Positions 8,101 to 43,385 of a stretch of 64,000 nt of DNA are shown here, one piece after another. Origin of the DNA: Antrihabitans auranticaus (GTDB taxonomy: Bacteria > Actinomycetota > Actinomycetes > Mycobacteriales > Mycobacteriaceae); NCBI RefSeq assembly GCF_016481275.1, contig NZ_JAEMNW010000005.1, positions 62,001-126,000 on the forward strand, read 5' to 3'. The position numbers and the translations under genes are program-made. Below the pieces are notes generated by a model, which was not told the DNA's origin, ran no database searches, and saw only the letters and a program-made list of their open reading frames with translations. How positions within the stretch are numbered: the stretch's first letter is position 1; every line of letters begins with the position of its first letter.

Positions 8101-8135
8101 GAAGGAAAAGCCCCGTATTCCGGGGGTTTTCCTTC
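8101..8135 (+). terminator. hairpin terminator after fbiB
   Basis: Fifteen-base arms at 8101-8115 and 8121-8135 (AAGGAAAAGCCCCG against CGGGGGTTTTCCTT) pair with one mismatch around a five-base loop. The GC-rich core and T-rich 3' side suit an intrinsic terminator; no long U tract follows. Confidence 0.65.
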
Positions 8136-8157
8136 CGTCTCCGAACTGCCACACGCG

Positions 8158-8706: not shown

Positions 8707-8714
8707 CGCCGCAG

Positions 8715-10719: not shown

Positions 10720-10726
10720 GTCGGCA

Positions 10727-10732
10727 AGCCTA
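10727..10732 (-). promoter_or_regulatory. leaderless -10 of wbbL overlapping the rmlD stop
   Basis: TAGGCT, seven bases before the wbbL GTG. Its TAG is also the in-frame stop codon of rmlD, so one hexamer serves as terminator codon and promoter element. Confidence 0.55.
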
Positions 10733-11587
10733 ACGTCCGATTTCGCCCCGTTCCGACAAAGCGGCTTGCAGACCCTCGCGCCACTGTGGCAATGGCAACA
10801 ATCCGGCACCGACCCACGCGGCGTCCGACAGCACCGAATAGGCGGGCCTCGGCGCCGGCCGGACGAATTGTTCGCTGGTGCAGGGCTTTACCCGGTCGGG
10901 ATCGGCACCGACCGACTCGAAGACCGCACGGGCAAGCTCGTACCAGCTGGCCTGGCCGCCGTTCGTGAGGTGCATTACGTTCGGCGCCTCGGGGCGGTCC
11001 ACGAGGTCCAGCAATCCTTCGGCAAGGTGCCCGGAGTAGGTCGGCGAACCGATCTGATCGACGACGACGTCGATCGTCTCGCGCTCGGATTCGAGCCGGA
11101 TCATCGTGGTGACGAAATCCGTCCCCGCACCCGTGTAGACCCAGGCGGTGCGCACGATCTGCGCGGTCGGCAGGGCGTCGAGAACGGCCTGCTCCCCCGC
11201 GAGCTTCGAGCGGCCGTAGACCGTTTTGGGGGCCGGTGGGTCCGCGGGTTCGTAGGGAGCGTCGGACGTTCCGGCGAATACGTAGTCCGTCGAAATGTGG
11301 ATCAGCCGTGCGCCGACCTCGGCGCAGACCTCGGCAAGCAGGCGCGGACCTGCCTCGTTGAGGGCGAATGCCGCCGCCTCTTCGCTCTCCGCGCGATCGA
11401 CCGCCGTATACGCCGCGCAGTTGATCACCACGCTGCCCGGTGTGATGCCGGCACGGACCGAACGTGGGTCGGTGATATCGAATTCCGCCGAGTTGTGGCC
11501 GACGGCGGCGAGCCCGCGTCGTGTGGCGCGCGCCACCAACTGGCGCCCCACCTGCCCCGCCGCACCGGTGACAATCACCTTTTCCAT
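10730..11587 (-). CDS. rmlD: dTDP-4-dehydrorhamnose reductase
   Basis: Last step of dTDP-L-rhamnose synthesis, reducing dTDP-6-deoxy-L-lyxo-4-hexulose with NAD(P)H. The 285-residue extended SDR protein has GAAGQVG (8-14) for the dinucleotide, the INCAAYTAVDRAE block typical of RmlD, the STDYVF strand and the catalytic Tyr124-x3-Lys128 in YGRSK. Start chosen at ATG 11587 because the SDR fold begins there, although the frame stays open far upstream. It diverges from the LCP gene over 108 bases. Its TAG stop overlaps the wbbL promoter. Confidence 0.95.
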   Translation of the reverse strand: MEKVIVTGAAGQVGRQLVARATRRGLAAVGHNSAEFDITDPRSVRAGITPGSVVINCAAYTAVDRAESEEAAAFALNEAGPRLLAEVCAEVGARLIHISTDYVFAGTSDAPYEPADPPAPKTVYGRSKLAGEQAVLDALPTAQIVRTAWVYTGAGTDFVTTMIRLESERETIDVVVDQIGSPTYSGHLAEGLLDLVDRPEAPNVMHLTNGGQASWYELARAVFESVGADPDRVKPCTSEQFVRPAPRPAYSVLSDAAWVGAGLLPLPQWREGLQAALSERGEIGR

Positions 11588-11695
11588 GGTCCAGAGTCTG
11601 GCACGCCGAAGAAATCGCTTCAGCCGACCGGCAGCCTCGGCAAAGTAGCCTGGAATCGAATATCGCAAACGTCGGGCTAGCAGAGAGGGGGCCAG

Positions 11696-13174: not shown

Positions 13175-13878
13175 CAACCACTCTCACCGAGGCTCTGCTG
13201 GACCCGATTCTCGCGCGGGAGCCTTCTGCGCCGCGGATCACCCACTACGACGACGCCACCGGCGCTCGCATCGAACTGTCCGGACTCACGCTCGCGAACT
13301 GGGCGGCCAAAACCGCCAACTTCGTGCGAGACGAATTCGTGCTGACGCCGGGCGCCCGGATTGCGGTGTTGCTGCCCGCGCACTGGCAAACTGCTGCGGT
13401 GTTGCTCGGTGCCTGGTGGGCCGGCGCGGAAGTCGTGTTGCACGCCGACCCTGACGCCGAACTTGCGCTTGTCACTCCCGATGGACTCGACGCGGTCACC
13501 GACGTGCCCGAAGTTGCGGTGCTGTCACTCGACGCGTTCGGCCGGCCGGTGCCAGATCTGCCGATCGGCGTCACCGATTACGCCAGTTCGGTCCGCGTCC
13601 ATGGCGACCAGTTCCATCCGGGCGGCGCCGGACTGGCACTCGACGGCGCAACGGTCGCCGAAGTCCTCGCGGCCGCCAAGGCATCCGCGGCCGAGCAGGG
13701 GTTCGCGCCTGGCGATCGTGTGCTTTCGACAGCGCACTGGTCCACACCGAGCGACCTCATCGCTGGGTTGCTGTCGGTATTCGTGATCGGCGGGTCGTTG
13801 GTCCAGGTGACCAACGAAGATCCTGCCACGCGCGGGCGGCGGATCGAGACCGAGCGGGTCGCGAGCCTGCGCGGTTAG
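13162..13878 (+). CDS. TIGR03089 family protein
   Basis: A 238-residue actinobacterial protein of the TIGR03089 family (Rv3268-type). It looks like a truncated N-terminal part of an AMP-forming acyl-CoA synthetase-like fold: LTLANWAAKTANFVRDEF and GARIAVLLPAHWQTAAVLLG match the early ANL-superfamily segments, but the P-loop, the adenylation motifs and the C-terminal lid are absent, so adenylating activity is not expected. It begins inside the 3' end of the LCP gene and is thus probably translated with it, hinting at a cell-wall role (inference). Its last four bases overlap the convergent gene. Confidence 0.85.
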   Translation: MRELATTLTEALLDPILAREPSAPRITHYDDATGARIELSGLTLANWAAKTANFVRDEFVLTPGARIAVLLPAHWQTAAVLLGAWWAGAEVVLHADPDAELALVTPDGLDAVTDVPEVAVLSLDAFGRPVPDLPIGVTDYASSVRVHGDQFHPGGAGLALDGATVAEVLAAAKASAAEQGFAPGDRVLSTAHWSTPSDLIAGLLSVFVIGGSLVQVTNEDPATRGRRIETERVASLRG

Positions 13879-14252
13879 CCGGTCGCGCGGTAGCCCCCGT
13901 CCGCCAACCCCGCCTCTACCTCGAACTTGTTGCGCGACTTCGGATTACGCATCTCCTCGACCAGATACCGCACGATGAACGAACTGCCGTACCGGCCCCA
14001 CTGGTCCGCGTGGATCGCCTCGTGCCGAATCGACTTGCGCGCGGTGTGGTTCTTGGTGAGGTAAGCCCCGCCGATGGTTGTACCCGCCCGACCGAACCCA
14101 GAGCGCATTCCCGAGCACACGTAGATGCCGTACTCCTCGTCGAACTCCACCTTCGCGCGCCACAACTTCGCCCACCCAAGCGCAATGACGGTGACCACTC
14201 TCGACTGCCAGGATCCGCGCGAGGCGCGGCGAAGATTGGTATTGCGCGGCAT
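13875..14252 (-). CDS. small HExxH protein, putative minimal metallopeptidase
   Basis: A 125-residue protein that I cannot assign to a named family. A short N-terminal region (VTVIALGWAKLW) is hydrophobic but not a clear signal. The key feature is HEAIHADQWGRYG: His77, Glu78 and His81 form an HExxH zinc motif, and Glu111 or Glu113 in NKFEVEAGL could be the third ligand, giving a mini-gluzincin plan. It is not in the M. tuberculosis order between Rv3268 and fadE25, so it is an insertion or a loss there. ATG at 14252; it overlaps the TIGR03089 gene tail to tail. Confidence 0.7.
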   Translation of the reverse strand: MPRNTNLRRASRGSWQSRVVTVIALGWAKLWRAKVEFDEEYGIYVCSGMRSGFGRAGTTIGGAYLTKNHTARKSIRHEAIHADQWGRYGSSFIVRYLVEEMRNPKSRNKFEVEAGLADGGYRATG

Positions 14253-14277
14253 GGCTAGAGGCTAGCGCCGGACTGGC

Positions 14278-14333
14278 TGCACACAAATCGGCGAAAGCGC
14301 CGGAAACCGGGCAAAAGTCGCGACTTGTGTGCA
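14278..14333. repeat. nested imperfect palindrome
   Basis: Arms 14278-14294 and 14318-14333 (TGCACACAA...GCGA against TCGCGACTTGTGTGCA) pair with one bulged and one mismatched base; the 23-base loop holds a second stem, GCCGG-AAA-CCGGGC. It lies between divergent genes, so it is not a simple terminator. Confidence 0.6.
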
Positions 14334-14343
14334 CTGACGCCGG

Positions 14344-14370
14344 TTATCCCCAAGCGTCGCGTTATCCACA
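14344..14370 (+). promoter_or_regulatory. two DnaA-box-like sequences
   Basis: TTATCCCCA at 14344 and TTATCCACA at 14362 lie in the same orientation 18 bases apart. The second equals the E. coli DnaA-box consensus. No other boxes cluster here, so an origin is not proposed. Confidence 0.4.
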
Positions 14371-14432
14371 GCTCACTCTGTTTCCCCAGTTCGCGAAATT
14401 CGGCTCTCCGTTGGGCGCGAAACGCTTTGGCG

Positions 14433-15284
14433 ATGGACCCCTTCGGAATTCGTACCTACCCCGAGTTGATCGCAAGCGGCGTACCGGGCAGCACAATCCA
14501 TGACCGCTGCAACCAGGGCATTTACCACCGCTTACTGCCGCAGATCTATTGCCTCGGCGAACCGACTGCTCTCGCCCGCTGCGCCGCGATCACCAAGTGG
14601 GTTCCCCGAGCTGTCCTGAGCCACCGGACCGCAGGCTGGCTTCGCGGCATGTTGCCTGAGCCGGCCGTATTCGAAGCCTCGGTTCCGCGATCGACCAGCA
14701 AACGCACGCCGAGTTGGCTGAAGCTGTATCGCCGCTCGTTGCGCTCTGAACTCGTGGGCGAGTGCTGGGGCATGCCGACCGTCGAACCCGCGCGAGCGTT
14801 GTTCGATTGCGTGTCGGTCATGCCGAAGTTGGAGGCGGGCAGGCTCATCGATGAACAACTGCGCGAACGAGTCGAGCCGTGCCGCTTGCTCGAGCTGTGC
14901 GAGCTGGATTCCGGAGTGCACGGTAACCCGGACGCACGGCGGCAGCTGAAGCAGGCCGCACTGCACGCGGCCTACGAACCGGAGCGCTTGTTCGCACGGG
15001 CACTCTCCGAAAGACGCTGCCCACTCCCTGCAAACAGGCCGGTGGGCACCTTCTTTTGCGACTTCGTCGACGAGCAATCGAAGACGATCGTCGAGATCGA
15101 CGGACGCGAATTTCACAGCGAACCCGAGGTCTTCCGTAAAGATCGACGCCGACAGAACTGGATCGTGCTGGAGAAGTGGTTGCTCCTCCGCTACGCGGCT
15201 TTCGATGTCTTCAACGAGCTCGATGAGATAGCCGATGAAGCGGTCGCCGTCGTGCGGCGTAGAAGGCGGGCACGTGGTGCCTGA
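14433..15284 (+). CDS. DUF559 (PD-(D/E)xK-like) protein with AbiEi-type N-terminal domain
   Basis: A 283-residue protein. The N-terminus (YPELIASGVPGSTIHDRC) looks like the winged-helix domain of AbiEi-type antitoxins; the C-terminal 80 residues match DUF559, a Vsr/endonuclease-like fold, with CDFVDEQSKTIVEIDGREFH giving the Asp and Glu-x-Asp positions of a PD-(D/E)xK site. Such genes recur in many copies in Rhodococcus, Gordonia and mycobacterial genomes and their role is unknown; defence or DNA repair has been guessed. ATG 14433 chosen because upstream frame text is non-protein-like. It is inserted relative to the M. tuberculosis gene order and ends convergent with the acyl-CoA dehydrogenase gene. 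Confidence 0.75.
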   Translation: MDPFGIRTYPELIASGVPGSTIHDRCNQGIYHRLLPQIYCLGEPTALARCAAITKWVPRAVLSHRTAGWLRGMLPEPAVFEASVPRSTSKRTPSWLKLYRRSLRSELVGECWGMPTVEPARALFDCVSVMPKLEAGRLIDEQLRERVEPCRLLELCELDSGVHGNPDARRQLKQAALHAAYEPERLFARALSERRCPLPANRPVGTFFCDFVDEQSKTIVEIDGREFHSEPEVFRKDRRRQNWIVLEKWLLLRYAAFDVFNELDEIADEAVAVVRRRRRARGA

Positions 15285-15312
15285 CTGCTACGCCGCAACG
15301 GCGGTCGAGTGG

Positions 15313-16473
15313 TTACTTCAGGAGCGCGCGAGACATGACGACTCGCTGAATCTGGTTGGTGCCCTCGTAGATCTGGGTGATCTTCGCGTCGCGCATCATG
15401 CGCTCGACCGGGAAGTCGGTGGTGTAGCCGGCGCCACCGAAGAGCTGCACGGCGTCGGTGGTGACCTCCATGGCCACGTCGGAGGCGAAGCACTTCGCGG
15501 CCGCGGAGATGAACCCGAGGTTCTTCTCGCCACGCTCTGCGCGCGCCGCGGCCGAGTAGACCATCAGGCGGGCGGCTTCGGTCTTCATCTGCATGTCGGC
15601 GATCATGAACTGAACAGCCTGGAAGCTCGAGATCGACTGCCCGAACTGCTTGCGGTCCTTGACGTATGCGATCGCAGCGTCGATGGCGCCCTGTGCGAGA
15701 CCGACTGCCTGCGCGCCGATTGTCGGGCGGGTGTGGTCGAGCGTCTCGAGTGCGGTCTTGAATCCGGTGCCCTCGGCACCGATCATGCGGTCGCCCGGGA
15801 TGCGGCAGTTCTCGAAGTACAGCTCGTTGGTTGGCGATCCCTTGATGCCGAGCTTGTGCTCCTTCGGGCCCACGGTGAAGCCTTCGTCATCGAGGTGCAC
15901 CATGAACGACGAGATGCCGTTGGCGCCACGCTCGGCGTCGGTGACGGCCATGACGGTGAACCACGTCGAGTTGGCGCCGTTGGTGATCCAACACTTGCTG
16001 CCGTTGAGGACCCACGAGTCGCCGTCCTTCTTCGCGCGCGTGCGCATGGCGGCGGCATCGGAACCGGCTTCGCGCTCGGACAGCGCGTAGGAGGCCATCG
16101 CCTTGCCCTCGGCGAGCGACGGAAGAACCTGCTGCTTGAGTTCCTCGGACCCGTTCAGGATCAGGCCCATGGTGCCGAGCTTGTTCACTGCCGGGATCAA
16201 GGAGGACGACCCGCAGACACGCGCAACTTCTTCGATCACGATGCAGGTGGCGACAGAATCGGCGCCCTGACCGCCGTACTCCTCAGGTACGTGAATGGCG
16301 TTGAAGCCGGACGCGACGAGCGCGTCGAGCGCCTCCTGTGGGAAGCGTGCGTTCTCGTCCACCTCTTTGGCGTACGGCGCGATTTCCTTCTCCGACAGCG
16401 CACGGATGGCTGCGCGCAGCTCGTCGTGTTCCTCGCCGAGCTTGAACAAATCGAAGTCCGGGTTCCCAGCCAT
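15313..16473 (-). CDS. fadE25: acyl-CoA dehydrogenase (FadE25-like)
   Basis: FAD enzyme introducing the alpha-beta double bond into acyl-CoA; orthologue by position of Rv3274c. The 386-residue protein is the usual short- or medium-chain ACAD size with all three domains: an alpha-helical N-terminus, a beta middle domain with YALSEREAGSDAA (FAD and substrate contacts), and the C-terminal block with RKQFGQSISSFQAVQ and QIYEGTNQIQR holding the probable catalytic Glu. The start is ATG 16473, with GAGGAG eight bases upstream; GTG 16482 would sit on top of that site. Two TetR-type palindromes flank its promoter and a TetR gene lies just upstream. Confidence 0.93.
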   Translation of the reverse strand: MAGNPDFDLFKLGEEHDELRAAIRALSEKEIAPYAKEVDENARFPQEALDALVASGFNAIHVPEEYGGQGADSVATCIVIEEVARVCGSSSLIPAVNKLGTMGLILNGSEELKQQVLPSLAEGKAMASYALSEREAGSDAAAMRTRAKKDGDSWVLNGSKCWITNGANSTWFTVMAVTDAERGANGISSFMVHLDDEGFTVGPKEHKLGIKGSPTNELYFENCRIPGDRMIGAEGTGFKTALETLDHTRPTIGAQAVGLAQGAIDAAIAYVKDRKQFGQSISSFQAVQFMIADMQMKTEAARLMVYSAAARAERGEKNLGFISAAAKCFASDVAMEVTTDAVQLFGGAGYTTDFPVERMMRDAKITQIYEGTNQIQRVVMSRALLK

Positions 16474-30672: not shown

Positions 30673-31698
30673 TCAGGTCGCGCTTGTGACCAGACGGTAG
30701 ACGAAACGCATCTTCTCCAGCACAGCCGCGGGGAGAACGAACGGATACAGGTCGGGACGGCCCATCGATCGGTTGAGCTGGTTCAGCGCCCATGACAGCG
30801 GCAGCCATTCCTCGATGATCCGGTCGAAGCCGGAAGCGCCGAGGAGCTGATGATCCAGCGCGACGCCCGACCGCGCGAAGCCGAACGCCGCGGCGGTATC
30901 GACCGTGTCGCGGATGTGCAGGTAGTGCGCAAAGGTTTCGGCCCAGTCCTCCGACGGATGCATCGTCGCGTACGACGAGACAAACGTTCGTTCCCAACCT
31001 GCGGGTGCGCCCTCGCGGTAGTGCCTGTCGAGCGCATCCTGATACGACGAATCCGGGTCACCGAACAACGACTCGAACTCGGCACGAGTGTCGGCGTTCC
31101 CGACAAGGATGCCGAAATAGTAGTGCCCGATCTCGTGGCGGAAATGCCCGAGCACGGTGCGATACGGCTCTGCCATCTCGACGCGGAGCTGCTCGCGATG
31201 CACGTCGTCGCTTTCGGCGAGGTCGAGCGTGATGACGCCGTTGAAATGGCCCGTCATCACTTTCTCGCGCCGACTCGACAGCAGGTCGAACGCCAGGCCC
31301 GTTACCGTGTCCTGTTCGCGCCCGATGATCGGCAGACCCAGCTCGACCAGTTCGAAGATCAGTCGGCGCTTGGCGCCTTCGGCGTCCGCGAATGCGTCGA
31401 GTGCGGCCTTGTCCGTGTCGGACGGTCTGGTCCGAGTCAACGTGCACGACTCGCACAACCCCACCTCGTCCGATGTCTCGACCACCCAGTTGCACCGCGC
31501 CAGATGCAGGTTCTTGCACAGCCGGTATTGCGACGAATCGACGACGCCCGATGTCTCGACATCCCCCTCCGGATCGCGTCCGATCACCACCAACGTGCGC
31601 TGTGCGAGCGAAAAGCCGAGTCGGCTTCTGCAACTCAGGCACAGGGAGTTCTCGAACGTGAGCTGCTGTCCGCAGTGTGGGCAGCCGAAATCTCGCAT
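30673..31698 (-). CDS. zinc-ribbon HExxH metallopeptidase (Peptidase_Mx-like)
   Basis: A 341-residue cytoplasmic protein. The N-terminus has two probable zinc sites: Cys6-x2-Cys9 with Cys20-x2-Cys23, then Cys61, Cys69, Cys82 and Cys85. The peptidase core has HEIGH at 188-192 and a downstream Glu254 in AETFAHYLHI, the gluzincin arrangement. It matches Rv2568c in type and length. It is the last gene of a four-gene run; its ATG shares a base with the stop of the transglutaminase (TGATG), and GGAGG sits just upstream. It is likely to cleave or process whatever the cluster makes (inference). Confidence 0.88.
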   Translation of the reverse strand: MRDFGCPHCGQQLTFENSLCLSCRSRLGFSLAQRTLVVIGRDPEGDVETSGVVDSSQYRLCKNLHLARCNWVVETSDEVGLCESCTLTRTRPSDTDKAALDAFADAEGAKRRLIFELVELGLPIIGREQDTVTGLAFDLLSSRREKVMTGHFNGVITLDLAESDDVHREQLRVEMAEPYRTVLGHFRHEIGHYYFGILVGNADTRAEFESLFGDPDSSYQDALDRHYREGAPAGWERTFVSSYATMHPSEDWAETFAHYLHIRDTVDTAAAFGFARSGVALDHQLLGASGFDRIIEEWLPLSWALNQLNRSMGRPDLYPFVLPAAVLEKMRFVYRLVTSAT

Positions 31699-32585
31699 CA
31701 AACCTCCGGTAATGGCGCGACGTCGACCGACACCGCGATCGTGCTCTTTTTCGCGTCCGTGTAGATCACACCTCGCAGTGGCGGGACGTCGGCGTAATCG
31801 CGTCCCCAGGCAACCGTGATGTAGCGCTCGTCCGCAAATTGGTCGTTCGTCGGGTCGAATGCGAGCCAGTCGGCAGTTTCCGAACCGGGCAGCCACACCG
31901 CCGCCCAGGCGTGAGTCGCATCGGCGCCGACCATGCGTTCCCGGCCCGGCGGCGGATCGGTCGCGAGATAGCCGGAAACGTACCGTGCCGCGAGACCCTG
32001 GCTGCGCAGGCAGGCGATGGCCACTCGCGCGAAGTCCTGGCAGACCCCTGACCGCTCCCGAAGCACCTCGTCCACCTGCGTCGATACCGTCGTCGAACCG
32101 GATTCGTAGGTGAAGTCGGTGTAGATCCGGTGGGTGAGTTCTGCGACGACCTCGCCGATCGGCCGGCCCGGCGTGAAAGTTGGAGCTGCATATTCATGGA
32201 CCGCGTCGGTGATCTCGGGCGGCAGCAGATCGAGAACGAACTCGACGGCTGTCGCACCGAGTAATGGATTCACTCGCGGCCGGGCCGATTCCCACGGCCG
32301 TGCCTGTGCGCCGGCGCCGTCGCTCGGGCGCTCGACCTCGACGGTGGATTCGCCTGTCACCACAAGCTTTTGGTGCGCTGTCACCACGTGGAAGAAGACG
32401 TCGGAATTGCCGTAGACGTCGTGGCCCGACGACTGGTCGGACGGAGTTGGTACGACCGTGACTGCGTGGTCGAGGACCCGCTGGGTCGGCAAATCTCGAG
32501 GCGTCAGGAAGCCGCGACCGTAGGACGACGACACTGAGTCCGAGTAGCCGTAGGTCGTTCGATGGGTGACGCGGTAGCGCCTCAT
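31698..32585 (-). CDS. transglutaminase-like cysteine protease-fold protein (COG1305)
   Basis: A 295-residue protein of the bacterial transglutaminase-like family with an N-terminal beta-sandwich domain (about 1-120, YRVTHRTTYGYSDSVSSSYG) and the papain-like core. The catalytic triad is Cys182 in RSGVCQDFA, His225 in DATHAWAAVW and Asp244 in LAFDPTN. Such enzymes hydrolyse or transfer amide bonds. It matches Rv2569c. I chose ATG 32585; a GTG or ATG farther upstream lies inside the preceding gene. It overlaps the ATP-grasp gene by four bases. Confidence 0.92.
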   Translation of the reverse strand: MRRYRVTHRTTYGYSDSVSSSYGRGFLTPRDLPTQRVLDHAVTVVPTPSDQSSGHDVYGNSDVFFHVVTAHQKLVVTGESTVEVERPSDGAGAQARPWESARPRVNPLLGATAVEFVLDLLPPEITDAVHEYAAPTFTPGRPIGEVVAELTHRIYTDFTYESGSTTVSTQVDEVLRERSGVCQDFARVAIACLRSQGLAARYVSGYLATDPPPGRERMVGADATHAWAAVWLPGSETADWLAFDPTNDQFADERYITVAWGRDYADVPPLRGVIYTDAKKSTIAVSVDVAPLPEV

Positions 32586-35158
32586 GGCATACGCCTGACG
32601 ATGGTTGCGCCCCACAGCGGCTGCATACCGGTCGGCACCGCCATCTTTTCGGTGAGGATGTCGGACAGTTCCCGCAGCGACGCGTGTACGCCGTCGAGCA
32701 ACTCCTGCAACTCGGTCCGCCGACCAGTCGAATCGGCTTCCTCGAGATCGCTCGGATCTGCGCGCCGCAGTCGTGCGCCGACCTCCTCGACCAGCCGTTC
32801 CGCTTTGCTGGACCCTGACGCGTCGGGTAGCGCACGCAGGTTGGCCCGGAGCTTGTCGAGCTGGTAGACGAGGGAGCGCGGGTTGCCGCCGTCGAACAGC
32901 AACAGCTGTGCCACTGCGCCGACCCGGACCTTGCCACGGTTGCGCCTGCGATAGGTCACCGACGACTCGGTCGCCGAAAGCACCGATTCGATGATGGCGC
33001 GCTCGGCGCTCGGCGGTTGGACGGTGGCCAACGTCGACGAGAGCAGCTTGGTCAGCTGCAGGCCGCGTTCGATTCGCTTACCGATGTCGGTCAGGTACCA
33101 ACCGGCGTCGTGGACCATCGATTCTGCCGAGAGACCGGAGAGGGCGAGCATCCCACCGAGAATCGTCCGCTGCGCGTCTGCAAGGACGAGCGGGTCTTCG
33201 CTTCTGGCGGCTTCTGCGAGCGCGCGGTCGAGGCCGCTGAACACCGACCACGTGTCGTTCGACAACTGATCCCGGACCGCTCGCGAGGCTTGCTGCAATC
33301 GATCCACCGATTGTGCGAGCGAGCCGGCCCGCCTGAGGTCGATGGTCAGCACCCGCTGCTGGTTGTCGAATTCCTCGACGCCGAACGTCACGGGTCCGGA
33401 GGCAGCCGACGCGGCGATGGCGCCGAAAAGCACAGGTAGGCAATCGCTTCCACCACGACCCGGACGGTAGCGGTAGTCGGCGACCTTGTCCCTGACCGCG
33501 TTGAGGAGGCGCGCGGTGTGTTCGGCGCGCTCGCCGTAGCGGCCGATCCAGTACAGGTCGTCGAGGACACGAGGCGACGTGACCGGTTCAGCGGTCGGAC
33601 CGAGATCGGGGAACGCCTCGGGCAGCGTCAGCGCACTCGGCGAACCCGCTTCGGCAGGGGTCACACGTTCTGCCGGGCGTACCCACACGTCCTTCGCGGA
33701 GGTCGAGACGATCGCACCGTCGCGGCCACGGTGCGAAATAACGGCGCCGAGACCGCCGTTGAGCGCGGCGTAGCCACCGCGTTGCGCCACGGAGAACATG
33801 CGGAACTGCACTGGTGCCGAGCTGATTGCGGACCCGGCTTCGATCGGAGCCGACGAGTGCTCGGGTAGTTCTACCCCGACCCAGAGGTGCGGCGCGGCAG
33901 CGATGCGCGCGCCGAGGTCGTCGCGCTGCTGCGTCGTGAGCGCCGCACCGAGAATGCCTGGACCACCGGTCACCCGCTCGAGCACCAGCGAGTCGAGCCG
34001 CGACAGGACATGCGACAGCTCGCTCGGATCGCCTGCCCAGTAGCGCGGCACGGACGGCAGCGCCAGGTCCTCGTCGAGCAATTCGCGACAGAGCCGGGGC
34101 AAAAGGCGTGGCAGTCCTGGGTTTTCGAGGACACCGCTGCCAAGTGTGTTGACGACGGTCACCGCGCCGCGCCGCATGACTTCCACAAGACCGACCACGC
34201 CCAACCTGGAATCGGGCCGCAGATCCAGTGGGTCGGAGAAGACCGCGTCGACACGGCGAAGGACGACGTCGACGCGTGCCAGCGTGCCGAGCGACCGCAT
34301 CCACAACCGCCCCTCGCGCACGACGAGGTCCGCGCTTTCGACCAGCGGGAATCCGAGCACTGTCGCCAGATGCGCCTGGTCGAAAGCCGTTTCGGAGTGT
34401 GCGCCCGGACTGAGGACGACGACGACGGGGTCCTCGACGGCTTCGGGTGCCGCGTCGATGAGCGCGAGGCGCATGGCCTGCGCAAAACCGGACAGCGGCA
34501 GTGGCCGAACGTCGGCAAACACTGTGGGCAACGCACGCGAGATGACGCGGCGATCGGCGAGCGCGTATCCGACGCCCGACGGTGCCTGCGTCCGGTCGGC
34601 GACGACCCGGAACGAGCCGTCGGCGCCACGTGCCACATCGGCACCGTGCAGGAACAGCTGATGCCGGGCAGGAACCGAGATACCGTGTGCCGCACGGACA
34701 TAACCTGGGTCGGCATAGATCAGTTCGGGCGGTACGAGTCCGCGCCGAATCGTGTGCAGCGGTCCGTAGATGTCGGCAAGCAGCGCGTCGAGCAACCGCG
34801 ACCGCTGCACAAGGCCGGCCTCGAGTGGTGCCCAATCCGTGGCAGACAGCACAAGAGGTAGCGAGTCGAGCAGCCACTGACTCGGCGCTGTGACCGGCGT
34901 GCCGTCGTCGGCCTCGCTGACCTCGTTGTACGTAATCCCGTCGTTCTCCACCAGCTGGTGGACGCGAGCCCGCAACGGAGACAGAGCAATGGGACCCGTC
35001 GACTCGGCGAGCTCACGCCATTGCTCGCGCACGTGACCGTCGGCGTCGAGCAGTTCGTCGTAGCGCGCCTGTACGCCCGCCGCGCCGGACTCCAGCGCGG
35101 CAGGAGCCAGCGTCGAGCGGTACGCGCTGATGACATCCTCGAGAACGCTACTCACCAA
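32582..35158 (-). CDS. circularly permuted ATP-grasp protein fused to an alpha-E domain
   Basis: An 858-residue protein (Rv2567-type). The N-terminal 480 residues match the circularly permuted ATP-grasp family (formerly DUF404/DUF407) with YADPGYVRAAHG, the VVADRTQAPSGVGYAL segment and VVVLSPGAHSETAFDQAHLA; the C-terminal 320 residues match the alpha-helical alpha-E domain (DUF403), with YWIGRYGERAEHTARL near its start. In other bacteria these are two genes. ATP-grasp enzymes ligate carboxylates to amines, so peptide or amide synthesis is likely; the substrate is unknown. ATG or GTG start at 35158 has no strong ribosome site. Confidence 0.92.
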   Translation of the reverse strand: MVSSVLEDVISAYRSTLAPAALESGAAGVQARYDELLDADGHVREQWRELAESTGPIALSPLRARVHQLVENDGITYNEVSEADDGTPVTAPSQWLLDSLPLVLSATDWAPLEAGLVQRSRLLDALLADIYGPLHTIRRGLVPPELIYADPGYVRAAHGISVPARHQLFLHGADVARGADGSFRVVADRTQAPSGVGYALADRRVISRALPTVFADVRPLPLSGFAQAMRLALIDAAPEAVEDPVVVVLSPGAHSETAFDQAHLATVLGFPLVESADLVVREGRLWMRSLGTLARVDVVLRRVDAVFSDPLDLRPDSRLGVVGLVEVMRRGAVTVVNTLGSGVLENPGLPRLLPRLCRELLDEDLALPSVPRYWAGDPSELSHVLSRLDSLVLERVTGGPGILGAALTTQQRDDLGARIAAAPHLWVGVELPEHSSAPIEAGSAISSAPVQFRMFSVAQRGGYAALNGGLGAVISHRGRDGAIVSTSAKDVWVRPAERVTPAEAGSPSALTLPEAFPDLGPTAEPVTSPRVLDDLYWIGRYGERAEHTARLLNAVRDKVADYRYRPGRGGSDCLPVLFGAIAASAASGPVTFGVEEFDNQQRVLTIDLRRAGSLAQSVDRLQQASRAVRDQLSNDTWSVFSGLDRALAEAARSEDPLVLADAQRTILGGMLALSGLSAESMVHDAGWYLTDIGKRIERGLQLTKLLSSTLATVQPPSAERAIIESVLSATESSVTYRRRNRGKVRVGAVAQLLLFDGGNPRSLVYQLDKLRANLRALPDASGSSKAERLVEEVGARLRRADPSDLEEADSTGRRTELQELLDGVHASLRELSDILTEKMAVPTGMQPLWGATIVRRMP

Positions 35159-35236
35159 ATATGCGACACCCCGAAGGCCGTCATCCTCCCGTCAGCGACA
35201 AACAGAACCTGCGAGATGATTATCGAACGCCACGCG

Positions 35237-38200
35237 TCAACGCAGCACCGAGTTCACTCGCCGAAGGTCAAGGATGCCAGGCGCACCGATATCCGTAGCG
35301 ATTCGGGCTCGCATTTCCAGCAGCCGATCCGTGTCGATCGCACCCGTCGAGAAACCGTTTTCGTCGAAACGCCTGCTCCGGCGTGACTCGGCCGCGACGG
35401 CATTGATCGGCGGACCCTCGTAGGACCGTCCGCCCGGATGCACGACGTGGTAAGTGCAGCCGCCACGCGACTGACCGCGTGCGAGGTCCACGAGATCGAA
35501 GACCAACGGGCTGTGCACCTCGATGCTCGGGTGCAGTGCGCTCGGGGGCTGCCAGGCCCGATACCGGATACCCGCCACCTGGACGTCGGCAGTGCCCGTC
35601 TCCTGCAGCGGCACCGGGATACCGTTGACGGTCAGCGCATACCGCCCGCGATCCGCACCGACGACGCGTACCTGCAATCGCTCGACCGACGAGTCGACGT
35701 ACCGCGCGGTTCCCGTCCCGGTTGCCTCTTCGCCGAGCACGTTCCACGGTTCGATAGCACCGCGGAGTTCGATCTCGACGCCGTTGCGCACAACCGTTCC
35801 GATGCGCGGGAAGCGGAACTCGGTGAACGGGTCGAGCCAGCTGGTGTCGAAGTCGATGCCGAAATCACGAAGATCCGCCGCAACATCGGCAATATCCGCG
35901 ATCACGTAGTGCGGCAACAGGTATCGCCCATGCAGATTCGCGCCGTGCCTGATCAGCGGTGCGCGCAGCGGCCGCTCCCAGAATCGTGCGACGAGTGCGC
36001 GCACGAGCAGCGATTGCACCATTGCCATCTGCTGGTGCGGCGGCATCTCGAAGCCGCGCAGTTCGAGGAGACCCAGCCGGCCACGCGCAGAATCCGGGCT
36101 GTAGAGCTTGTCTATGCAGAACTCGGCGCGGTGGGTGTTTCCGGTGAGGTCGGTAAGCAGGTGCCGCAACGCGCGGTCGACCAGCCACGGCTGCGCTTCG
36201 TCGCTGTCGGCGGTCAGCCGGTCGATCTCGGCGAACGCGATCTCGAGTTCGTAGAGCGATTCCTGCCGGCCTTCGTCCACTCGCGGTGCCTGGGACGTCG
36301 GACCGATGAACCTGCCCGAGAACAGGTACGACAACGACGGGTGGCGCTGCCAGTAGGTCAGCAGGGACACCAGCAGGTCGGGCCGCCGCAAAAGAGGCGA
36401 ATTCTTGGGCGTGACGCCACCCAACGTGATGTGGTTGCCGCCGCCCGTGCCGCCGTGGGTGCCGTCGTGATCGAAGGACTCGGTGCTCAGCCGAACGAGC
36501 CTGGCCTGCTCGTACAGCGTCTCGAGCAAAGCTGCCTGCTCCGCGAACGAGGCCGTCGGCTGCACGTTCACCTCGATCACGCCGGGATCGGGGGTGACGC
36601 TCAGGCTTTGTAGCCGTGGATCGCTCGGCGGACCGTAGCCCTCGATGACGACCGGCGTTCCGGCGTCGGACGCCGCGAGTTCGATCTGGCCGAGCAGTTC
36701 GGCGAACGATTCCAGGTCCGGCAACGGCGGCATGAAGACGTACAGGATGCCATCGCGCACTTCCGCGACGAGTGCCGTCGTCGGAACGAAGTTGTCAGGT
36801 TCGGTTACTGCAGCTGTGGACAGCGCGGGGACCGCCTTGGCCGCGAGCGGCAGCGGATCTTTGTCGATCGTCGGATCGGACTCGAAGTCCGGCTCCGGCG
36901 GGTCCCACGAGATCGAGTCGAGCGGCAAGCGCAAGCCGGCGGGAGAATCGCCGTCCAGCAACACGATTCGACCGCGGCGCAATCGCCAATCCGCGCTCTC
37001 CCAGGCATCGCCGGCTTCGCTGCGATTAATCGGCACGACGAACGCAATGGGCTCAGCGACCGGCGTCTCGTACGCCTGCAGCAGCCGCTCGCGGGCAGCG
37101 ACAGTGTCCGATTCAGGTTCGAGGTCGGGTGTCGTCGAACGTTCGATCGGCGCGCCGGCAGGCATTCGCAGCGCGGTATGCAACCTGCCGACGGCGTCCT
37201 CGTACGCGGGCCTGACCTGGCTGAGCGGCAAACCGAGTTGCGCGGCAACAGATTCGGCGAGCTCCTGGGCGTCGTGTGTGGACGCCGGTTGGGGACGGCG
37301 CCCCCACGGGTCGGCGAGTAGCTTCTCGTCGGTCCAGAGGGCCTCGCCGTCGGTGCGCCAGTAGATCCCGATCTGCCAGCGCGGCAGGGGTTCACCCGGA
37401 TACCACTTGCCCTGGCTGCGCTGCACGTACCCCTGCGGTGCATAGATTCGCTTGAGCCGCTCGGCCAGTGCGCTCGCGCGCTCGCGCTTCTGCGGTCCGT
37501 CGGCCGCAGTCGTCCACTCGGCCGCTTCCTGGTCGTCGATCGAGACGAAGGTGGGTTCGCCACCCATCGTCAATCGCACATCGCCGTCTTCGAGGCGCTT
37601 GTCGACCGTCGCGCCGAGCGCGGTGATGGACGTCCACTGCTTTTCCGTGTACGGCAGGGTGACGCGCGGGTCCTCGTGGATCCGTCGGACGGTGTTGGAA
37701 AAGTCCAGCGTCGCTGTGCATTTACCCGTCGCGCCAGTGATCGGCGCGGCCGAGGCGGGATGCGGTGTGGCGGCGAGCGGGATGTGCCCCTCCCCCGCGA
37801 ACAGCCCGGACGTGGGGTCGAGGCCGACCCAGCCTGCGCCGGGAAGGTACACCTCGGTCCAGGCGTGCAGATCGGTGAAATCCGCCGCGGGTCCGGACGG
37901 CCCGTCCAGCGCGGGGGTATCGGACGTCAACTGCACCAGGTAGCCCGACACGAAGCGCGCCGCGAGACCGTACTCCCGCAGGATCGACACGAGCAGCCAC
38001 GCCGAATCCCGGCAGGAACCGATCCCGGAGGTCAAGGTGTGGTCCGGCGTCTGCACTCCGGCTTCGAGGCGGACGTTGTACGCGACGTCAGCGAGGACGG
38101 CATTGTTCAGTTCGACAAGGAAGTCGATGGTCCGCACACCGGCGGCAACGTCGCGTTTCTTCACCCACTCGCGCACGACCGGGCCCGGTCCACCGCCGCC

Positions 38201-38578
38201 TTCGGACATCTCGTCGACCGGCCGGAGGTAGGACTCGAGGTCCGCGGCAAGTTCGGGCGTATAGGCGAACCCGAAGTATTCGGCATAGTCCTCGACGAAG
38301 AAGTCCAGCGGATTGATCGACTCCATGTCGGCGATCAAACCGACCGTTATGGACAGCGACCGAGTCCGTTCCGGAAACACCAACCGCGCCATGAAATTTC
38401 CGAAGGCATCCTGCTGCCAGTTCAGAAAGTGCTCCGCGGGTTCCACCTGCAACGAGAACGCCTCGATCGGCGTGCGCGAGTGTGGGGCCGGCCGCAGCCG
38501 AACCACGTGCGGGTAGATCTCGACCAGCTGATCGAACTCATAGCTGGTGCGATGCTCCAGCGCGACCTTGATGCCCAT
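35237..38578 (-). CDS. large transglutaminase-like protein with DUF2126
   Basis: An 1113-residue protein (Rv2566-type) opening the cluster. Residues 1-300 are a transglutaminase-like module with beta-sandwich leader and triad Cys189 in SGIGSCRDSAW, His238 in TDLHAWTEVYL and Asp254 in GLDPTSG. The remaining 800 residues are the DUF2126 region, whose fold is unknown to me; landmarks are MGGEPTFVSID, GKWYPGEPLPRWQIGIYWR and TGGGNHITLGG. No signal peptide or membrane segment is visible, so the system seems cytoplasmic. The ATG has a GGGAAGGG site and a TAGCGT -10 about 35 bases upstream. A 78-base gap separates it from the ATP-grasp gene. Confidence 0.92.
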   Translation of the reverse strand: MGIKVALEHRTSYEFDQLVEIYPHVVRLRPAPHSRTPIEAFSLQVEPAEHFLNWQQDAFGNFMARLVFPERTRSLSITVGLIADMESINPLDFFVEDYAEYFGFAYTPELAADLESYLRPVDEMSEGGGGPGPVVREWVKKRDVAAGVRTIDFLVELNNAVLADVAYNVRLEAGVQTPDHTLTSGIGSCRDSAWLLVSILREYGLAARFVSGYLVQLTSDTPALDGPSGPAADFTDLHAWTEVYLPGAGWVGLDPTSGLFAGEGHIPLAATPHPASAAPITGATGKCTATLDFSNTVRRIHEDPRVTLPYTEKQWTSITALGATVDKRLEDGDVRLTMGGEPTFVSIDDQEAAEWTTAADGPQKRERASALAERLKRIYAPQGYVQRSQGKWYPGEPLPRWQIGIYWRTDGEALWTDEKLLADPWGRRPQPASTHDAQELAESVAAQLGLPLSQVRPAYEDAVGRLHTALRMPAGAPIERSTTPDLEPESDTVAARERLLQAYETPVAEPIAFVVPINRSEAGDAWESADWRLRRGRIVLLDGDSPAGLRLPLDSISWDPPEPDFESDPTIDKDPLPLAAKAVPALSTAAVTEPDNFVPTTALVAEVRDGILYVFMPPLPDLESFAELLGQIELAASDAGTPVVIEGYGPPSDPRLQSLSVTPDPGVIEVNVQPTASFAEQAALLETLYEQARLVRLSTESFDHDGTHGGTGGGNHITLGGVTPKNSPLLRRPDLLVSLLTYWQRHPSLSYLFSGRFIGPTSQAPRVDEGRQESLYELEIAFAEIDRLTADSDEAQPWLVDRALRHLLTDLTGNTHRAEFCIDKLYSPDSARGRLGLLELRGFEMPPHQQMAMVQSLLVRALVARFWERPLRAPLIRHGANLHGRYLLPHYVIADIADVAADLRDFGIDFDTSWLDPFTEFRFPRIGTVVRNGVEIELRGAIEPWNVLGEEATGTGTARYVDSSVERLQVRVVGADRGRYALTVNGIPVPLQETGTADVQVAGIRYRAWQPPSALHPSIEVHSPLVFDLVDLARGQSRGGCTYHVVHPGGRSYEGPPINAVAAESRRSRRFDENGFSTGAIDTDRLLEMRARIATDIGAPGILDLRRVNSVLR

Positions 38579-40066: not shown

Positions 40067-40576
40067 CTAACGCTCGTAGAATGTTTGCAGGATGATGGTG
40101 CTTCGGGTGTTGACGTTGGCCGTCTGCCGAATCTCGTGCAGCAACTGCTCGAGATGGCGCGGCGACGACACCCGGACCATCAGGACATAGCTGTCGTCAC
40201 CCGCGACCGAATGGCAGGACTCGATCGCCGCGATGTGCTGGAGGCGATTGGGGGCATCGTCGGGCTGCGACGGATCGAGAGGAGTGATCGCGACAAATGC
40301 CGACAGCATCTGACCGAGCGCTTCGGGGTCGACATGGGCCGTGTATCCCCGGATCACTCCGCGCGCTTCCAGGCGACGCACCCGCGACTGCACAGCCGAA
40401 ACAGACAGACTCGCCTTCTCCGCGAGGTTCGACAAAGTCGCCCGTCCGTCCGCGACGAGCTCGCGAATCAGCAACCTGTCGACCTCGTCGATCACCAATC
40501 GTGGCGACTCGGCTCGCGCATTGTTCGACCGCGAAGCGAGCGGACCCCCGAGAACCGGCCGTGGTGTTTCTGCCAT
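40067..40576 (-). CDS. lrpA: Lrp/AsnC-family regulator LrpA
   Basis: A 169-residue feast/famine regulator, orthologue by position of Rv3291c. A 20-residue polar tail precedes the helix-turn-helix (about 30-75; IDEVDRLLIRELVADGRATL, then LSVSAVQSRVRRLE) and the C-terminal RAM domain binds an amino acid and drives octamer formation (VAITPLDPSQ, GDDSYVLMVRV). The M. tuberculosis protein has been reported to bind upstream of lat. I chose ATG 40576, six bases after a TAGCCT -10, over the TTG at 40579. It diverges from the HglS-like gene with 30 bases between. Confidence 0.93.
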   Translation of the reverse strand: MAETPRPVLGGPLASRSNNARAESPRLVIDEVDRLLIRELVADGRATLSNLAEKASLSVSAVQSRVRRLEARGVIRGYTAHVDPEALGQMLSAFVAITPLDPSQPDDAPNRLQHIAAIESCHSVAGDDSYVLMVRVSSPRHLEQLLHEIRQTANVNTRSTIILQTFYER

Positions 40577-40582
40577 CAAGGA

Positions 40583-40588
40583 AGGCTA
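40583..40588 (-). promoter_or_regulatory. leaderless -10 of lrpA
   Basis: TAGCCT, six bases before ATG 40576. Confidence 0.55.
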
Positions 40589-40606
40589 GCTCAGTGGTGG
40601 CCATCC

Positions 40607-41899
40607 ATGGCTGAAACTTGGGAGCTGCGCGCCCGATTTTCAAGATCACTCTCGCGCATGTACGCCGCCGAAGTCCCCGCCTACTCGACGCTCGTCGAGG
40701 TGACGAACCTCGTCAATCAGGACTTCGCCCGTGCCCATCCGGAGCAGGCCGAGCGCCTGGGCTCGACAGCTCGGGTGAGCGCGGAGCGCCACGGCGCGAT
40801 CCGCGTCGGAACGCCCGACGAGCTTGCGCAGGTCACAGCCATTTTTGCGGCGTTCGGGATGCTGCCGGTCGGGTTCTACGATCTTCGCGAGGCCACCACA
40901 CCGGTTCCGGTCGTGTCCACGGCTTTCCGCCCGACCGATCCCGGCGAACTGGCCCGCAACCCGTTCCGGGTCTTCACGTCGATGCTCGCGACAGGCGATC
41001 GGCGCTTCTTCGACCCCGACCTCGCCGGCCGAATCGACCGTTTCCTGGCACGACGCTCATTGTTTGCTCCAGAGCTGCTGGAGCGTGCCCGGAAGGCGAT
41101 CAGGGACCGTGGAGCGACCGAAGCGGACGCGTCACGCCTGGTCGAATTGGCGACCACCGCGTTCGAATTGTCCACGGCCGCGATCGACCACGCGTGGTAC
41201 GCAGAACTCGCGGCAATCTCCGACGTCGCAGCCGATATTGCCGGCGTGGACAGCACCCACATCAACCACCTGACCCCCCGGGTCCTCGATATCGACGAGC
41301 TCTACCGCCGGATGACCGACCGTAAAATCGCGATGATCGACCGCATCCAGGGGCCACCCCGGCTCGTGGGTCCGGACGTGCTGCTTCGCCAGACGTCGTT
41401 TCGCGCGCTCGCAGAACCCCGGCGGTTCCGGCACCCGGACGGATCGGTGCGCGCGGGGAGCCTGCGTGTGCGCTTCGGCGAGGTGGAAGCGCGCGGCGTC
41501 GCCCTCACCCCGAAGGGTCGCGCCCGCTACGACGAGCTGGTGGCCGACAACGCGGACCACGCCACGTGGAATCGGAACTTCCCTTCCGAGTCCGCCCTTG
41601 CCGAGAACGAGCTCGCATATTTCACGTATCGACCGGCGCGCGGGAAACTCGTCGCAGAGCCCATCGTCTACGAGGATTTCCTACCGGCCTCGGCCGCCGG
41701 CATATTTCAGTCGAACCTGACCTCGACGGGCAGATCCAGAGTCGACGTGGGCGAGTCTCCGGACTACAGCCGCGAATGGCTCTCCGCCGCAATAGGCTTC
41801 GACGTCGCAGATCCGTTCGAGCTCTACCGTTCCCAGCAGGAAGCCACACGTCGCGCAGCGACGAAACAACTCGGGAGGTCCAGTGTCGACACTCGCTAG
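40607..41899 (+). CDS. 2-oxoadipate dioxygenase/decarboxylase (HglS/YdcJ, DUF1338 family)
   Basis: A 430-residue protein of the VOC-fold DUF1338 family. Characterised HglS-type members are iron(II) enzymes converting 2-oxoadipate to D-2-hydroxyglutarate in lysine catabolism. The probable metal and substrate residues are visible: His62 and Arg66 in RHGAIRV, His221 in THINHLTPRV and a Glu in the GEVEARG segment. It is Rv3292-like. It diverges from lrpA and overlaps pcd by 17 bases. With lat and pcd nearby, the pathway assignment is strong although the precise substrate is inferred. ATG 40607; a longer open frame upstream crosses lrpA antisense and is not used. Confidence 0.88.
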   Translation: MAETWELRARFSRSLSRMYAAEVPAYSTLVEVTNLVNQDFARAHPEQAERLGSTARVSAERHGAIRVGTPDELAQVTAIFAAFGMLPVGFYDLREATTPVPVVSTAFRPTDPGELARNPFRVFTSMLATGDRRFFDPDLAGRIDRFLARRSLFAPELLERARKAIRDRGATEADASRLVELATTAFELSTAAIDHAWYAELAAISDVAADIAGVDSTHINHLTPRVLDIDELYRRMTDRKIAMIDRIQGPPRLVGPDVLLRQTSFRALAEPRRFRHPDGSVRAGSLRVRFGEVEARGVALTPKGRARYDELVADNADHATWNRNFPSESALAENELAYFTYRPARGKLVAEPIVYEDFLPASAAGIFQSNLTSTGRSRVDVGESPDYSREWLSAAIGFDVADPFELYRSQQEATRRAATKQLGRSSVDTR

Positions 41900-43385
41900 G
41901 CGGGCAGCTGACGCCCTCGCCCGGATCGGAGCGAACGTCCCCGATTCCGGCGATCTGCCGGCACGGTCGCCGATCACCGGCGAAGTGCTGTGTCTGGTCG
42001 AGGCGTCCAACACCGCAGCCGTCGATGCCGCGATTACCGCTGCCCACAACGCTTTCCGGAATTGGCGGACGGTCCCGGCGCCGGTGCGCGCGGCGGTTGT
42101 CCGCCGCCTGGGCGGGCTTCTCGCCGAACACAAGGACGACCTCGCCGAACTCGTGACCCTCGAAGCCGGAAAGATCACGTCCGAGGCACGCGGCGAAGTG
42201 CAGGAGATGATCGACGTCTGCGAGTTCGCGGTCGGTCTGTCCCGCCAGTTGTACGGCAAGACAATGACTTCGGAACGGCCCGGCCACCGGCTCATGGAAA
42301 CGTGGCACCCGCTCGGCGTGGTCGGCGTGATCTCCGCGTTCAACTTCCCCGTCGCCGTCTGGTCCTGGAACACGGCGATAGCACTGGTCTGTGGCGACAC
42401 TGTGGTCTGGAAACCCTCGGAGGCAACGACATTGACAGCGATCGCGTGCACCGCGCTGCTTCGGCGCGCATGCGCCGACGAGGGCGCCGACCCCGATGTG
42501 CACCAGCTCGTGCTCGGTGCGGCTCCGGTCGGTGAGCAGTTAGTGGAGGACTCCAGGGTCGCGTTGCTCAGCGCCACAGGCTCGGTCCGCATGGGCCGTA
42601 CCGTTGCGCCGCGAGTCGCGGCACGCTTCGGCCGCTGCCTGCTCGAACTCGGCGGCAACAACGGTGCAATCGTCACTCCGTCCGCCGATCTCGACCTCGC
42701 TGTCCGCGGCATCGTCTTCGCCGCCGCCGGGACCGCTGGGCAACGCTGCACGACTCTGCGGCGGGTCATCGTCCACGAATCGGTCGCCGACGAGCTGGTC
42801 GAGCGCATTGCGAATGCGTACAGGCAACTCCGCGTCGGCAATCCATTCGACGAGGGAGTGCTGGTCGGCCCGCTGATCAGCAGCGACGCGTATGCGGCAA
42901 TGGCGGGCGCGCTGGAGAAGGCCGGTTCGGACGGCGGCGAATTGATCTGCGGCGGAGACCGAATCGACGTCGAAGGCGACTATTCCTTCTACGTCACCCC
43001 GGCGGTGGTCAGAATGCGCGCGCAAACTTCCGTCGTTCGCGAGGAGACGTTCGCGCCAATCCTGTACATCCTCACCTACAACGATTTCGATTCTGCCATC
43101 GAATTGCACAACGCAGTGCCACAGGGTCTTTCATCCGCGATCTTCACCACCGACGTGCGCGAGGCCGAGCGCTTCATCGCGGCTGACGGCTCGGATTGTG
43201 GAATCGCGAACGTCAACATCGGCACGTCCGGCGCCGAGATCGGCGGCGCGTTCGGCGGCGAGAAGGAAACCGGCGGCGGTCGCGAATCGGGATCGGACTC
43301 GTGGAAGGCGTACATGCGCCGCGCGACCAACACGATCAATTACTCGAATCAGCTGCCGCTGGCTCAGGGCGTCAACTTCGGGTAG
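41883..43385 (+). CDS. pcd: piperideine-6-carboxylate / aminoadipate semialdehyde dehydrogenase
   Basis: Oxidises alpha-aminoadipate semialdehyde (the Lat product) to 2-aminoadipate with NAD(P). The 500-residue ALDH has the coenzyme segment VGVISAFNFPVAVWSWN, the general base Glu255 in LELGGNN and the nucleophile Cys289 in GTAGQRCTTLRR; the N-terminal two thirds follow the ALDH7/AASADH style (KTMTSERPGHR). It is Rv3293-like. GTG start, 17 bases inside the HglS-like gene, so one operon. Its last 22 bases overlap a convergent gene. Confidence 0.94.
   Translation: MSTLARRAADALARIGANVPDSGDLPARSPITGEVLCLVEASNTAAVDAAITAAHNAFRNWRTVPAPVRAAVVRRLGGLLAEHKDDLAELVTLEAGKITSEARGEVQEMIDVCEFAVGLSRQLYGKTMTSERPGHRLMETWHPLGVVGVISAFNFPVAVWSWNTAIALVCGDTVVWKPSEATTLTAIACTALLRRACADEGADPDVHQLVLGAAPVGEQLVEDSRVALLSATGSVRMGRTVAPRVAARFGRCLLELGGNNGAIVTPSADLDLAVRGIVFAAAGTAGQRCTTLRRVIVHESVADELVERIANAYRQLRVGNPFDEGVLVGPLISSDAYAAMAGALEKAGSDGGELICGGDRIDVEGDYSFYVTPAVVRMRAQTSVVREETFAPILYILTYNDFDSAIELHNAVPQGLSSAIFTTDVREAERFIAADGSDCGIANVNIGTSGAEIGGAFGGEKETGGGRESGSDSWKAYMRRATNTINYSNQLPLAQGVNFG

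What the first reader, a model, noticed from the sequence alone, without database searches (positions are those of the whole stretch)
30673..38578. Four-gene transglutaminase / ATP-grasp-alpha-E / metallopeptidase system of unknown function
Two transglutaminase-fold proteins (Cys-His-Asp triads visible), one ligase-like ATP-grasp fused to an alpha-E domain, and a zinc-ribbon HExxH peptidase are co-oriented, with 1-4 base overlaps between the last three. The combination can make and break amide bonds, so it looks like a synthesis or protein-modification pathway for a peptide-like product. M. tuberculosis has the same four types at Rv2566-Rv2569c. Here they are inserted in the accA3-lat interval, unlike the flanking synteny, and form one strand run. 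No substrate, product or carrier peptide gene is evident. The product is inference.
Basis: partly seen in the sequence, partly recalled or inferred. Interest (0 to 1): 0.85.

Follow-up and report, generated by a model that had tools for sequence, protein, structure and literature searches.

The report
Paired amide-ligase and peptidase gene cluster
These four genes are a real, widely conserved bacterial set of enzymes that probably builds and cuts a peptide-like amide; the type was predicted in print years ago, but what it makes is still unknown.

Summary

It is a member of a known predicted system (Iyer 2008/2009, Rv2566 named there), not a new kind. In 121 family genomes, DUF2126 (35) never occurs without the ATP-grasp/alpha-E gene, and the peptidase accompanies it in 34 of 35 genomes but lies nearby in only 15 of 35 loci. 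Across phyla the neighbouring peptidase is this one (16 of 80 loci) or Anbu (18 of 80), never both.

In this lineage the cluster is missing from the usual aspS-rarA site and lies between accA3 and lat.

In Proteobacteria 18 of 73 operon heads carry sigma-54-like sites (0.41 expected), in line with published nitrogen-starvation induction. No such sign (GlnR) was found in Mycobacteriales.

Most likely it is an ATP-driven amide-making/amide-breaking cycle. Substrate and product are unknown.

The parts
35237..38578 (-). Transglutaminase-fold domain fused to DUF2126 (glutamine-synthetase-like ligase), 1113 aa
   Evidence: PF08379, PF01841, PF09899; catalytic triad invariant in 48 sequences
37724..38578 (-). 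N-terminal transglutaminase-fold domain (about residues 1-285)
35759..37675 (-). GS-like ligase domain of DUF2126 (about residues 302-940)
32582..35158 (-). Circularly permuted ATP-grasp fused to alpha-E domain, 858 aa
   Evidence: PF14403, PF04174, PF04168; model mean pLDDT 87.0
33674..35062 (-). ATP-grasp domain (about residues 33-495)
32648..33574 (-). Alpha-E helical domain (about residues 529-837)
   Evidence: PF04168, 228.2 bits; no trustworthy fold match
31698..32585 (-). Stand-alone transglutaminase-fold protein, 295 aa, ATGA overlap with the gene above
   Evidence: PF08379, PF01841; triad invariant in 34 sequences
30673..31698 (-). Zinc-ribbon HExxH peptidase (Peptidase_Mx), 341 aa from ATG 31698
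   Evidence: PF10005, PF15887; start

Best explanation
The cluster encodes a probably cytoplasmic, ATP-driven amide-bond cycle. Two ligases of different fold, a glutathione-synthetase-like ATP-grasp and a glutamine-synthetase-like DUF2126 domain, each activate a carboxylate and join it to an amine. Each ligase is paired with its own Cys-His-Asp transglutaminase-fold domain, one by fusion and one by overlapping genes, which cleaves or transfers the bond. The zinc peptidase trims or removes the product; in other bacteria the proteasome-like Anbu fills that place. The substrate is probably a small peptide or gamma-glutamyl-type compound, or a protein that receives it. Shown here: gene set, folds (by model and profile), conserved catalytic residues, co-occurrence. 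Inferred: activities, compartment, functional pairing, substrate and product.
Against: I found no activity or product reported for this four-gene form as a system (searches; Iyer 2009 not held). Yersinia Anbu showed no peptidase activity and no detectable binding to its operon partners (PMC6376114, passages). The pairing of ligase and hydrolase is read from gene layout only. A profile comparison of DUF2126 with GCS2 ligases was not significant, so the ligase claim rests on the model and on Pfam's and Iyer's assignment. 10 of 80 loci show no ATP-grasp gene beside DUF2126; most are cut by contig ends, but L129, L141 and L143 have more than 8 kb on both sides.
Confidence: 0.6

Rival explanations
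1. It is a nitrogen-starvation system: induced when ammonium is short, it makes or takes apart gamma-glutamyl-amine or isopeptide compounds to recover nitrogen. This is a more specific form of the best explanation.
For: Sigma-54 consensus within 250 bases upstream of 18 of 73 operon heads in Proteobacteria against 0.41 in shuffles (after a first look). NtrC-like palindromes upstream of 14 of 73 heads against 1.04; these are 11 distinct sites, three being shared by divergent genes. The B. cenocepacia cluster I35_5080-5083 falls 6.0 to 9.4-fold in an ntrC mutant and is listed as also sigma-54 dependent (PMC5491218, passages). P. putida PP_2686-2688 rise 11 to 15-fold under nitrogen limitation (PMC7801951, passages). 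Marine metagenome domains track urea metabolism (PMC3597751, passages).
Against: Mycobacteriales: GlnR-like boxes upstream of DUF2126 in 0 of 27 loci (1.62 expected), of ATP-grasp 4 of 34 (1.95), transglutaminase 1 of 34 (2.1), peptidase 1 of 14 (1.1). Sigma-54 sites: 0 of 22 heads in Actinomycetota, 0 of 12 in Bacteroidota, 1 of 11 in others. In P. putida the induction persists in an rpoN mutant, and the Anbu gene PP_2685 itself is unchanged (1.12-fold) in PMC7801951, though up 11.1-fold in PMC3325844 (passages). The GlnR, M. smegmatis and Mtb nitrogen papers do not name the cluster under the terms searched (supplements not seen). A Paraburkholderia nitrogen-starvation paper has no mention. 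Sigma-54 is not specific to nitrogen.
Confidence: 0.35
2. It tags proteins with a peptide (Iyer's prediction), a second pupylation-like pathway, with the peptidase as de-tagging enzyme.
For: Ligase plus peptidase plus transglutaminase composition; the peptidase place is filled by a metallopeptidase or by the proteasome homologue Anbu.
Against: No small ORF conserved across phyla in 80 loci and none in the cluster of 35 family loci, so a tag would have to be non-ribosomal or encoded elsewhere. The own genome has two Pup-ligase-family genes elsewhere. I saw no report of a tagged protein.
Confidence: 0.25
3. The stand-alone transglutaminase is a secreted or wall-bound serine protease acting on host proteins, and the neighbours are unrelated.
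For: PMC11081392 (passages) reports casein and E-cadherin cleavage by recombinant Rv2569c, blocked by PMSF and AEBSF, not by E-64 or NEM, and a cell-wall location.
Against: The family keeps an invariant Cys-His-Asp triad (34 sequences), has no evident signal sequence in the window's protein (by eye) and travels with the ligases in all 35 family loci and in many environmental bacteria of several phyla.
Confidence: 0.05
4. The four genes are neighbours by chance or by hitch-hiking.
For: The peptidase is not nearby in 20 of 35 DUF2126 loci.
Against: Co-occurrence: peptidase in 50 of 64 genomes with the fused gene and 1 of 57 without; translational overlaps; the whole set is found at the new site and missing from the old one.
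Confidence: 0.03

Closest known systems
Rv2566-Rv2569c cluster of M. tuberculosis (predicted ligase/transglutaminase system; Iyer, Burroughs and Aravind 2008, PMC2588565, one passage seen; Iyer et al. 2009, not held)
   Same: The Mtb genes themselves were not examined
   Different: In L078-L080 the peptidase and transglutaminase run opposite to the ligases; here all four are co-oriented and lie at accA3-lat, not near aspS
Anbu operon (ATP-grasp, alpha-E, transglutaminase, Anbu; PMC5666114, PMC6376114, passages)
   Same: Homologous ATP-grasp, alpha-E and transglutaminase; a peptidase in the set; NtrC-linked in Pseudomonas
   Different: No Anbu in this cluster; Peptidase_Mx instead; ATP-grasp and alpha-E fused; DUF2126 ligase added
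Glutathionylspermidine synthetase/amidase and trypanothione synthetase-amidase
   Different: Recalled: not permuted, no alpha-E, a CHAP amidase and not a transglutaminase fold, known polyamine product
Rlo operon of P. aeruginosa (PMC12239564, passages) and RimK/RimB
   Same: ATP-grasp with transglutaminase-like and peptidase genes; [quoted passage not shown]
   Different: RloC resembles RimK, the transglutaminase is inactive and membrane-bound, and the protease is an aspartic one

Membership tests
Iyer-type permuted ATP-grasp/GS-like ligase system | Circularly permuted ATP-grasp | tested here: met
Iyer-type permuted ATP-grasp/GS-like ligase system | Alpha-E domain with ER motif | tested here: met
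   PF04168 228.2 bits; Arg540 and Arg544 invariant in 41 sequences, Glu543 the majority residue
Iyer-type permuted ATP-grasp/GS-like ligase system | GS-like ligase fused to a transglutaminase domain | tested here: met
Iyer-type permuted ATP-grasp/GS-like ligase system | Tags proteins or makes a peptide | not testable with these tools
   needs biochemistry
Anbu operon | Anbu (Ntn-hydrolase) gene in the operon | tested here: not met
   the four genes are of other families; elsewhere in the genome inconclusive: 0 of 121 family genomes ring, without a positive-control genome
Pupylation | Pup-like carrier peptide next to the ligase | tested here: not met
   no small ORF conserved across phyla near 80 loci, none in the cluster of 35 family loci
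Transglutaminase-like superfamily | Cys-His-Asp triad | tested here: met
   invariant in both proteins
Transglutaminase-like superfamily | Glutamine-lysine cross-linking activity | not testable with these tools
   the fold also serves hydrolases (recalled)
Peptidase_Mx metallopeptidase | HExxH, downstream Glu, zinc ribbon | tested here: met
   PF15887 331.5 bits, PF10005 85.5 bits; invariant residues in 13 sequences

The most novel reading that the evidence does not exclude
A bacterial nitrogen-starvation pathway that reversibly caps a peptide or protein with amine-bearing groups, using two unrelated ligases each chained to its own cysteine amidase, with one interchangeable peptidase place filled either by the proteasome homologue Anbu or by an unrelated zinc peptidase. 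It would explain what Anbu is for.
Probability: 0.25. Interest if true: 0.8.

Novelty: new member of a known kind. Interest (0 to 1): 0.45.

Why it matters
The system is spread over many phyla and occurs on a plasmid of a blood-borne Enterobacter isolate, yet I found no known product. Three results here make it easier to test. DUF2126 is modelled as a second ligase of glutamine-synthetase fold. The neighbouring peptidase is one of two unrelated kinds that were never seen together in 80 loci. About a quarter of the proteobacterial operon heads carry sigma-54-like sites, far beyond chance, which points to nitrogen starvation as a condition in which to look. It also gives a comparative handle on Anbu, whose substrate is an open question in proteasome evolution.

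Tried and rejected

Limits of counts: genome sets were transcribed by hand (fused versus stand-alone alpha-E judged by score and frame length), and locus sets. Absence of DUF2126 beside the ATP-grasp/transglutaminase pair was checked in DNA for 13 of the 29 genomes concerned. Fisher values ignore relatedness. On the DUF2126 tree each peptidase label needs 4 changes, of which well-supported branches force 3 (one quick tree of 80 rows: 79 loci, L145 lacking a full open frame, plus the window). Many of the 80 loci are cut by contig ends. The 80 are the best of at least 592 stretches.

Full report
WHAT IS THERE. Four genes lie on the minus strand, in order 35237-38578, 32582-35158, 31698-32585 and 30673-31698. 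Pfam assigns: Bact_transglu_N + Transglut_core + DUF2126; CP_ATPgrasp_2/CP_ATPgrasp_1 + Alpha-E; Bact_transglu_N + Transglut_core; Zn_ribbon_DZR_6 + Peptidase_Mx. The peptidase probably starts at ATG 31698 in a TGATG overlap behind a GGAGG site, and the transglutaminase at an ATGA overlap. The first gene is 78 bases from the second and 96 bases from lysine 6-aminotransferase upstream (TIGR03251, 720 bits). G+C does not set the cluster apart.

WHICH GENES BELONG TOGETHER. In 121 genomes of the window's family, DUF2126 is in 35, Peptidase_Mx in 51 and alpha-E in 74. Most alpha-E genomes hold two copies: a stand-alone one of another, related system (own genome: L048) and the fused one. The fused one is in 64 by my reading. 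All 35 DUF2126 genomes have the fused gene; 29 of the 64 with the fused gene lack DUF2126. In 13 of these 29 I looked at the DNA: the ATP-grasp/alpha-E and transglutaminase genes are adjacent and DUF2126 is missing. The peptidase is in 34 of 35 DUF2126 genomes, 16 of 29 with the fused gene alone, and 1 of 57 without it. In all 34 fetched family loci and the window, DUF2126, ATP-grasp and transglutaminase lie within one stretch; in two loci (L022, L045) the transglutaminase and peptidase are turned round. The peptidase is nearby in 15 of 35.

PLACE IN THE CHROMOSOME. Among 34 family loci plus the window, an aspS gene is in 22, rarA in 23 and an APH-like gene in 18; the common order is aspS, often DUF389, the cluster, APH-like, rarA (also in most of the DUF2126-less loci). 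In the window's genome that site is empty: aspS, DUF389 and APH-like are adjacent (L155). The accA3-lat site that holds the cluster here, in G015 and in G042 is empty in the fourth congener G061, where DUF1707 and lat are neighbours (L154) and the cluster sits elsewhere with the peptidase 3 kb away (L018). The set therefore moved as a block, or was lost and regained; the direction was not tested.

ACROSS BACTERIA. A scan of genome contigs with a DUF2126 alignment kept 80 loci from Actinomycetota, Pseudomonadota, Bacteroidota, Verrucomicrobiota, Planctomycetota, Nitrospirota and others. Of the 80, 70 have a permuted ATP-grasp nearby: fused form in 56, split form in 40. Anbu is in 18, Peptidase_Mx in 16, both in none (Fisher p 0.017, relatedness ignored). 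The Anbu query was checked against solved Anbu chains (E 1.8e-76 to 1.3e-55). Peptidase_Mx goes with the fused form (16 of 16), Anbu mostly with the split form (16 of 18). On a quick tree each label needs 4 changes, 3 of them forced by well-supported branches, so the association probably arose more than once. Ten loci show no ATP-grasp partner; most are cut short, but L129, L141 and L143 have long flanks.

REGULATION. In Proteobacteria a near-consensus sigma-54 site lies within 250 bases upstream of 18 of 73 operon heads (16 of 42 loci; 0.41 expected from shuffles; 3 in antisense), against 0 of 22 in Actinomycetota, 0 of 12 in Bacteroidota and 1 of 11 in others. NtrC-like palindromes are upstream of 14 of 73 heads (11 distinct sites) against 1.04, and 0 elsewhere. 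This agrees in part with published data: B. cenocepacia I35_5080-5083 depends on NtrC and sigma-54 (PMC5491218, passages); P. putida PP_2686-2688 rise 11 to 15-fold under nitrogen limitation (PMC7801951, passages) and PP2685-2687 7 to 11-fold (PMC3325844, passage). Against it: in PMC7801951 the rise persists in an rpoN mutant and the Anbu gene PP_2685 is unchanged. In Mycobacteriales no GlnR-like box stands upstream of DUF2126 (0 of 27, 1.62 expected), and other genes of the cluster are near chance (ATP-grasp 4 of 34, 1.95 expected). So the nitrogen link is supported for Proteobacteria and open for the window's lineage. That lat is linked to starvation in M. tuberculosis I saw only in a search listing (PMC4726150).

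HOW IT PROBABLY WORKS. Shown: the parts, modelled folds and linkage. Inferred: each ligase makes an acyl phosphate and an amide, the transglutaminase partner cleaves or transfers that amide, and the peptidase trims or removes. Known enzymes that work this way are the glutathionylspermidine and trypanothione synthetase-amidases (their chemistry recalled, the fold match). The product is probably non-ribosomal, since no carrier ORF is conserved nearby. Whether it is a free metabolite, a nitrogen compound or a protein tag cannot be decided here.

AGAINST. Yersinia Anbu had no peptidase activity and no detectable partner (PMC6376114, passages). A 2024 paper calls Rv2569c an extracellular serine protease from inhibitor data (PMC11081392, passages); that fits poorly with the invariant Cys-His-Asp triad and with the company the gene keeps.

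NOVELTY. The kind is known and predicted in print: PMC2588565 passage; Iyer 2009 is not held and known to me from citing papers and recall. I found no paper in the held library linking Peptidase_Mx to it, which does not exclude Iyer 2009. The window is a displaced, fully co-oriented member.

Noticed in passing
L048 (own genome C19:278000-291000), 4372-7736: A second, related set (ATP-grasp/alpha-E match 29% and transglutaminase 33% identical) sits elsewhere in the same genome; by recall it is the Rv2409c-Rv2411c type.
   Followed up: partly
L049 (own genome C19:530000-544000), 6535-7539: A second Peptidase_Mx gene, 64% identical, with no ligase gene of the set within the 14 kb fetched.
   Followed up: no
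L068 (Enterobacter roggenkampii plasmid, 90.7 kb), 6603-15794: Both the split and the fused set lie in one run on an IncFII plasmid from a blood isolate, with IS elements and an arsC gene nearby.
   Followed up: no
L069 (Acidithiobacillus caldus megaplasmid), 1843-4373 and 8199-16435: An Anbu/DUF2126 set with a frame-broken DUF2126 gene lies near glnL/ntrC and an aliphatic amidase gene.
   Followed up: no
L111 13293-14516 and relatives in L090, L100, L115, L137: An unassigned family of about 407 aa recurs in 5 proteobacterial loci, at a median of about 106 bases from a gene of the system; the member in L111 had no Pfam match.
   Followed up: partly
L032 3103-4308 and family 5: An APH-like kinase gene of unknown function lies beside the transglutaminase at the aspS-rarA site; the family is in 18 of 35 loci and stays when the cluster is absent.
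   Followed up: partly
window 40085-43385: HglS and an aldehyde dehydrogenase stand divergent to lat: a lysine-degradation block next to the cluster.
   Followed up: partly
L027, L037, L039, L040, L042: DUF2126 proteins of some genera carry a divergent or inserted stretch in the GS-like domain near residues 576-601.
   Followed up: no
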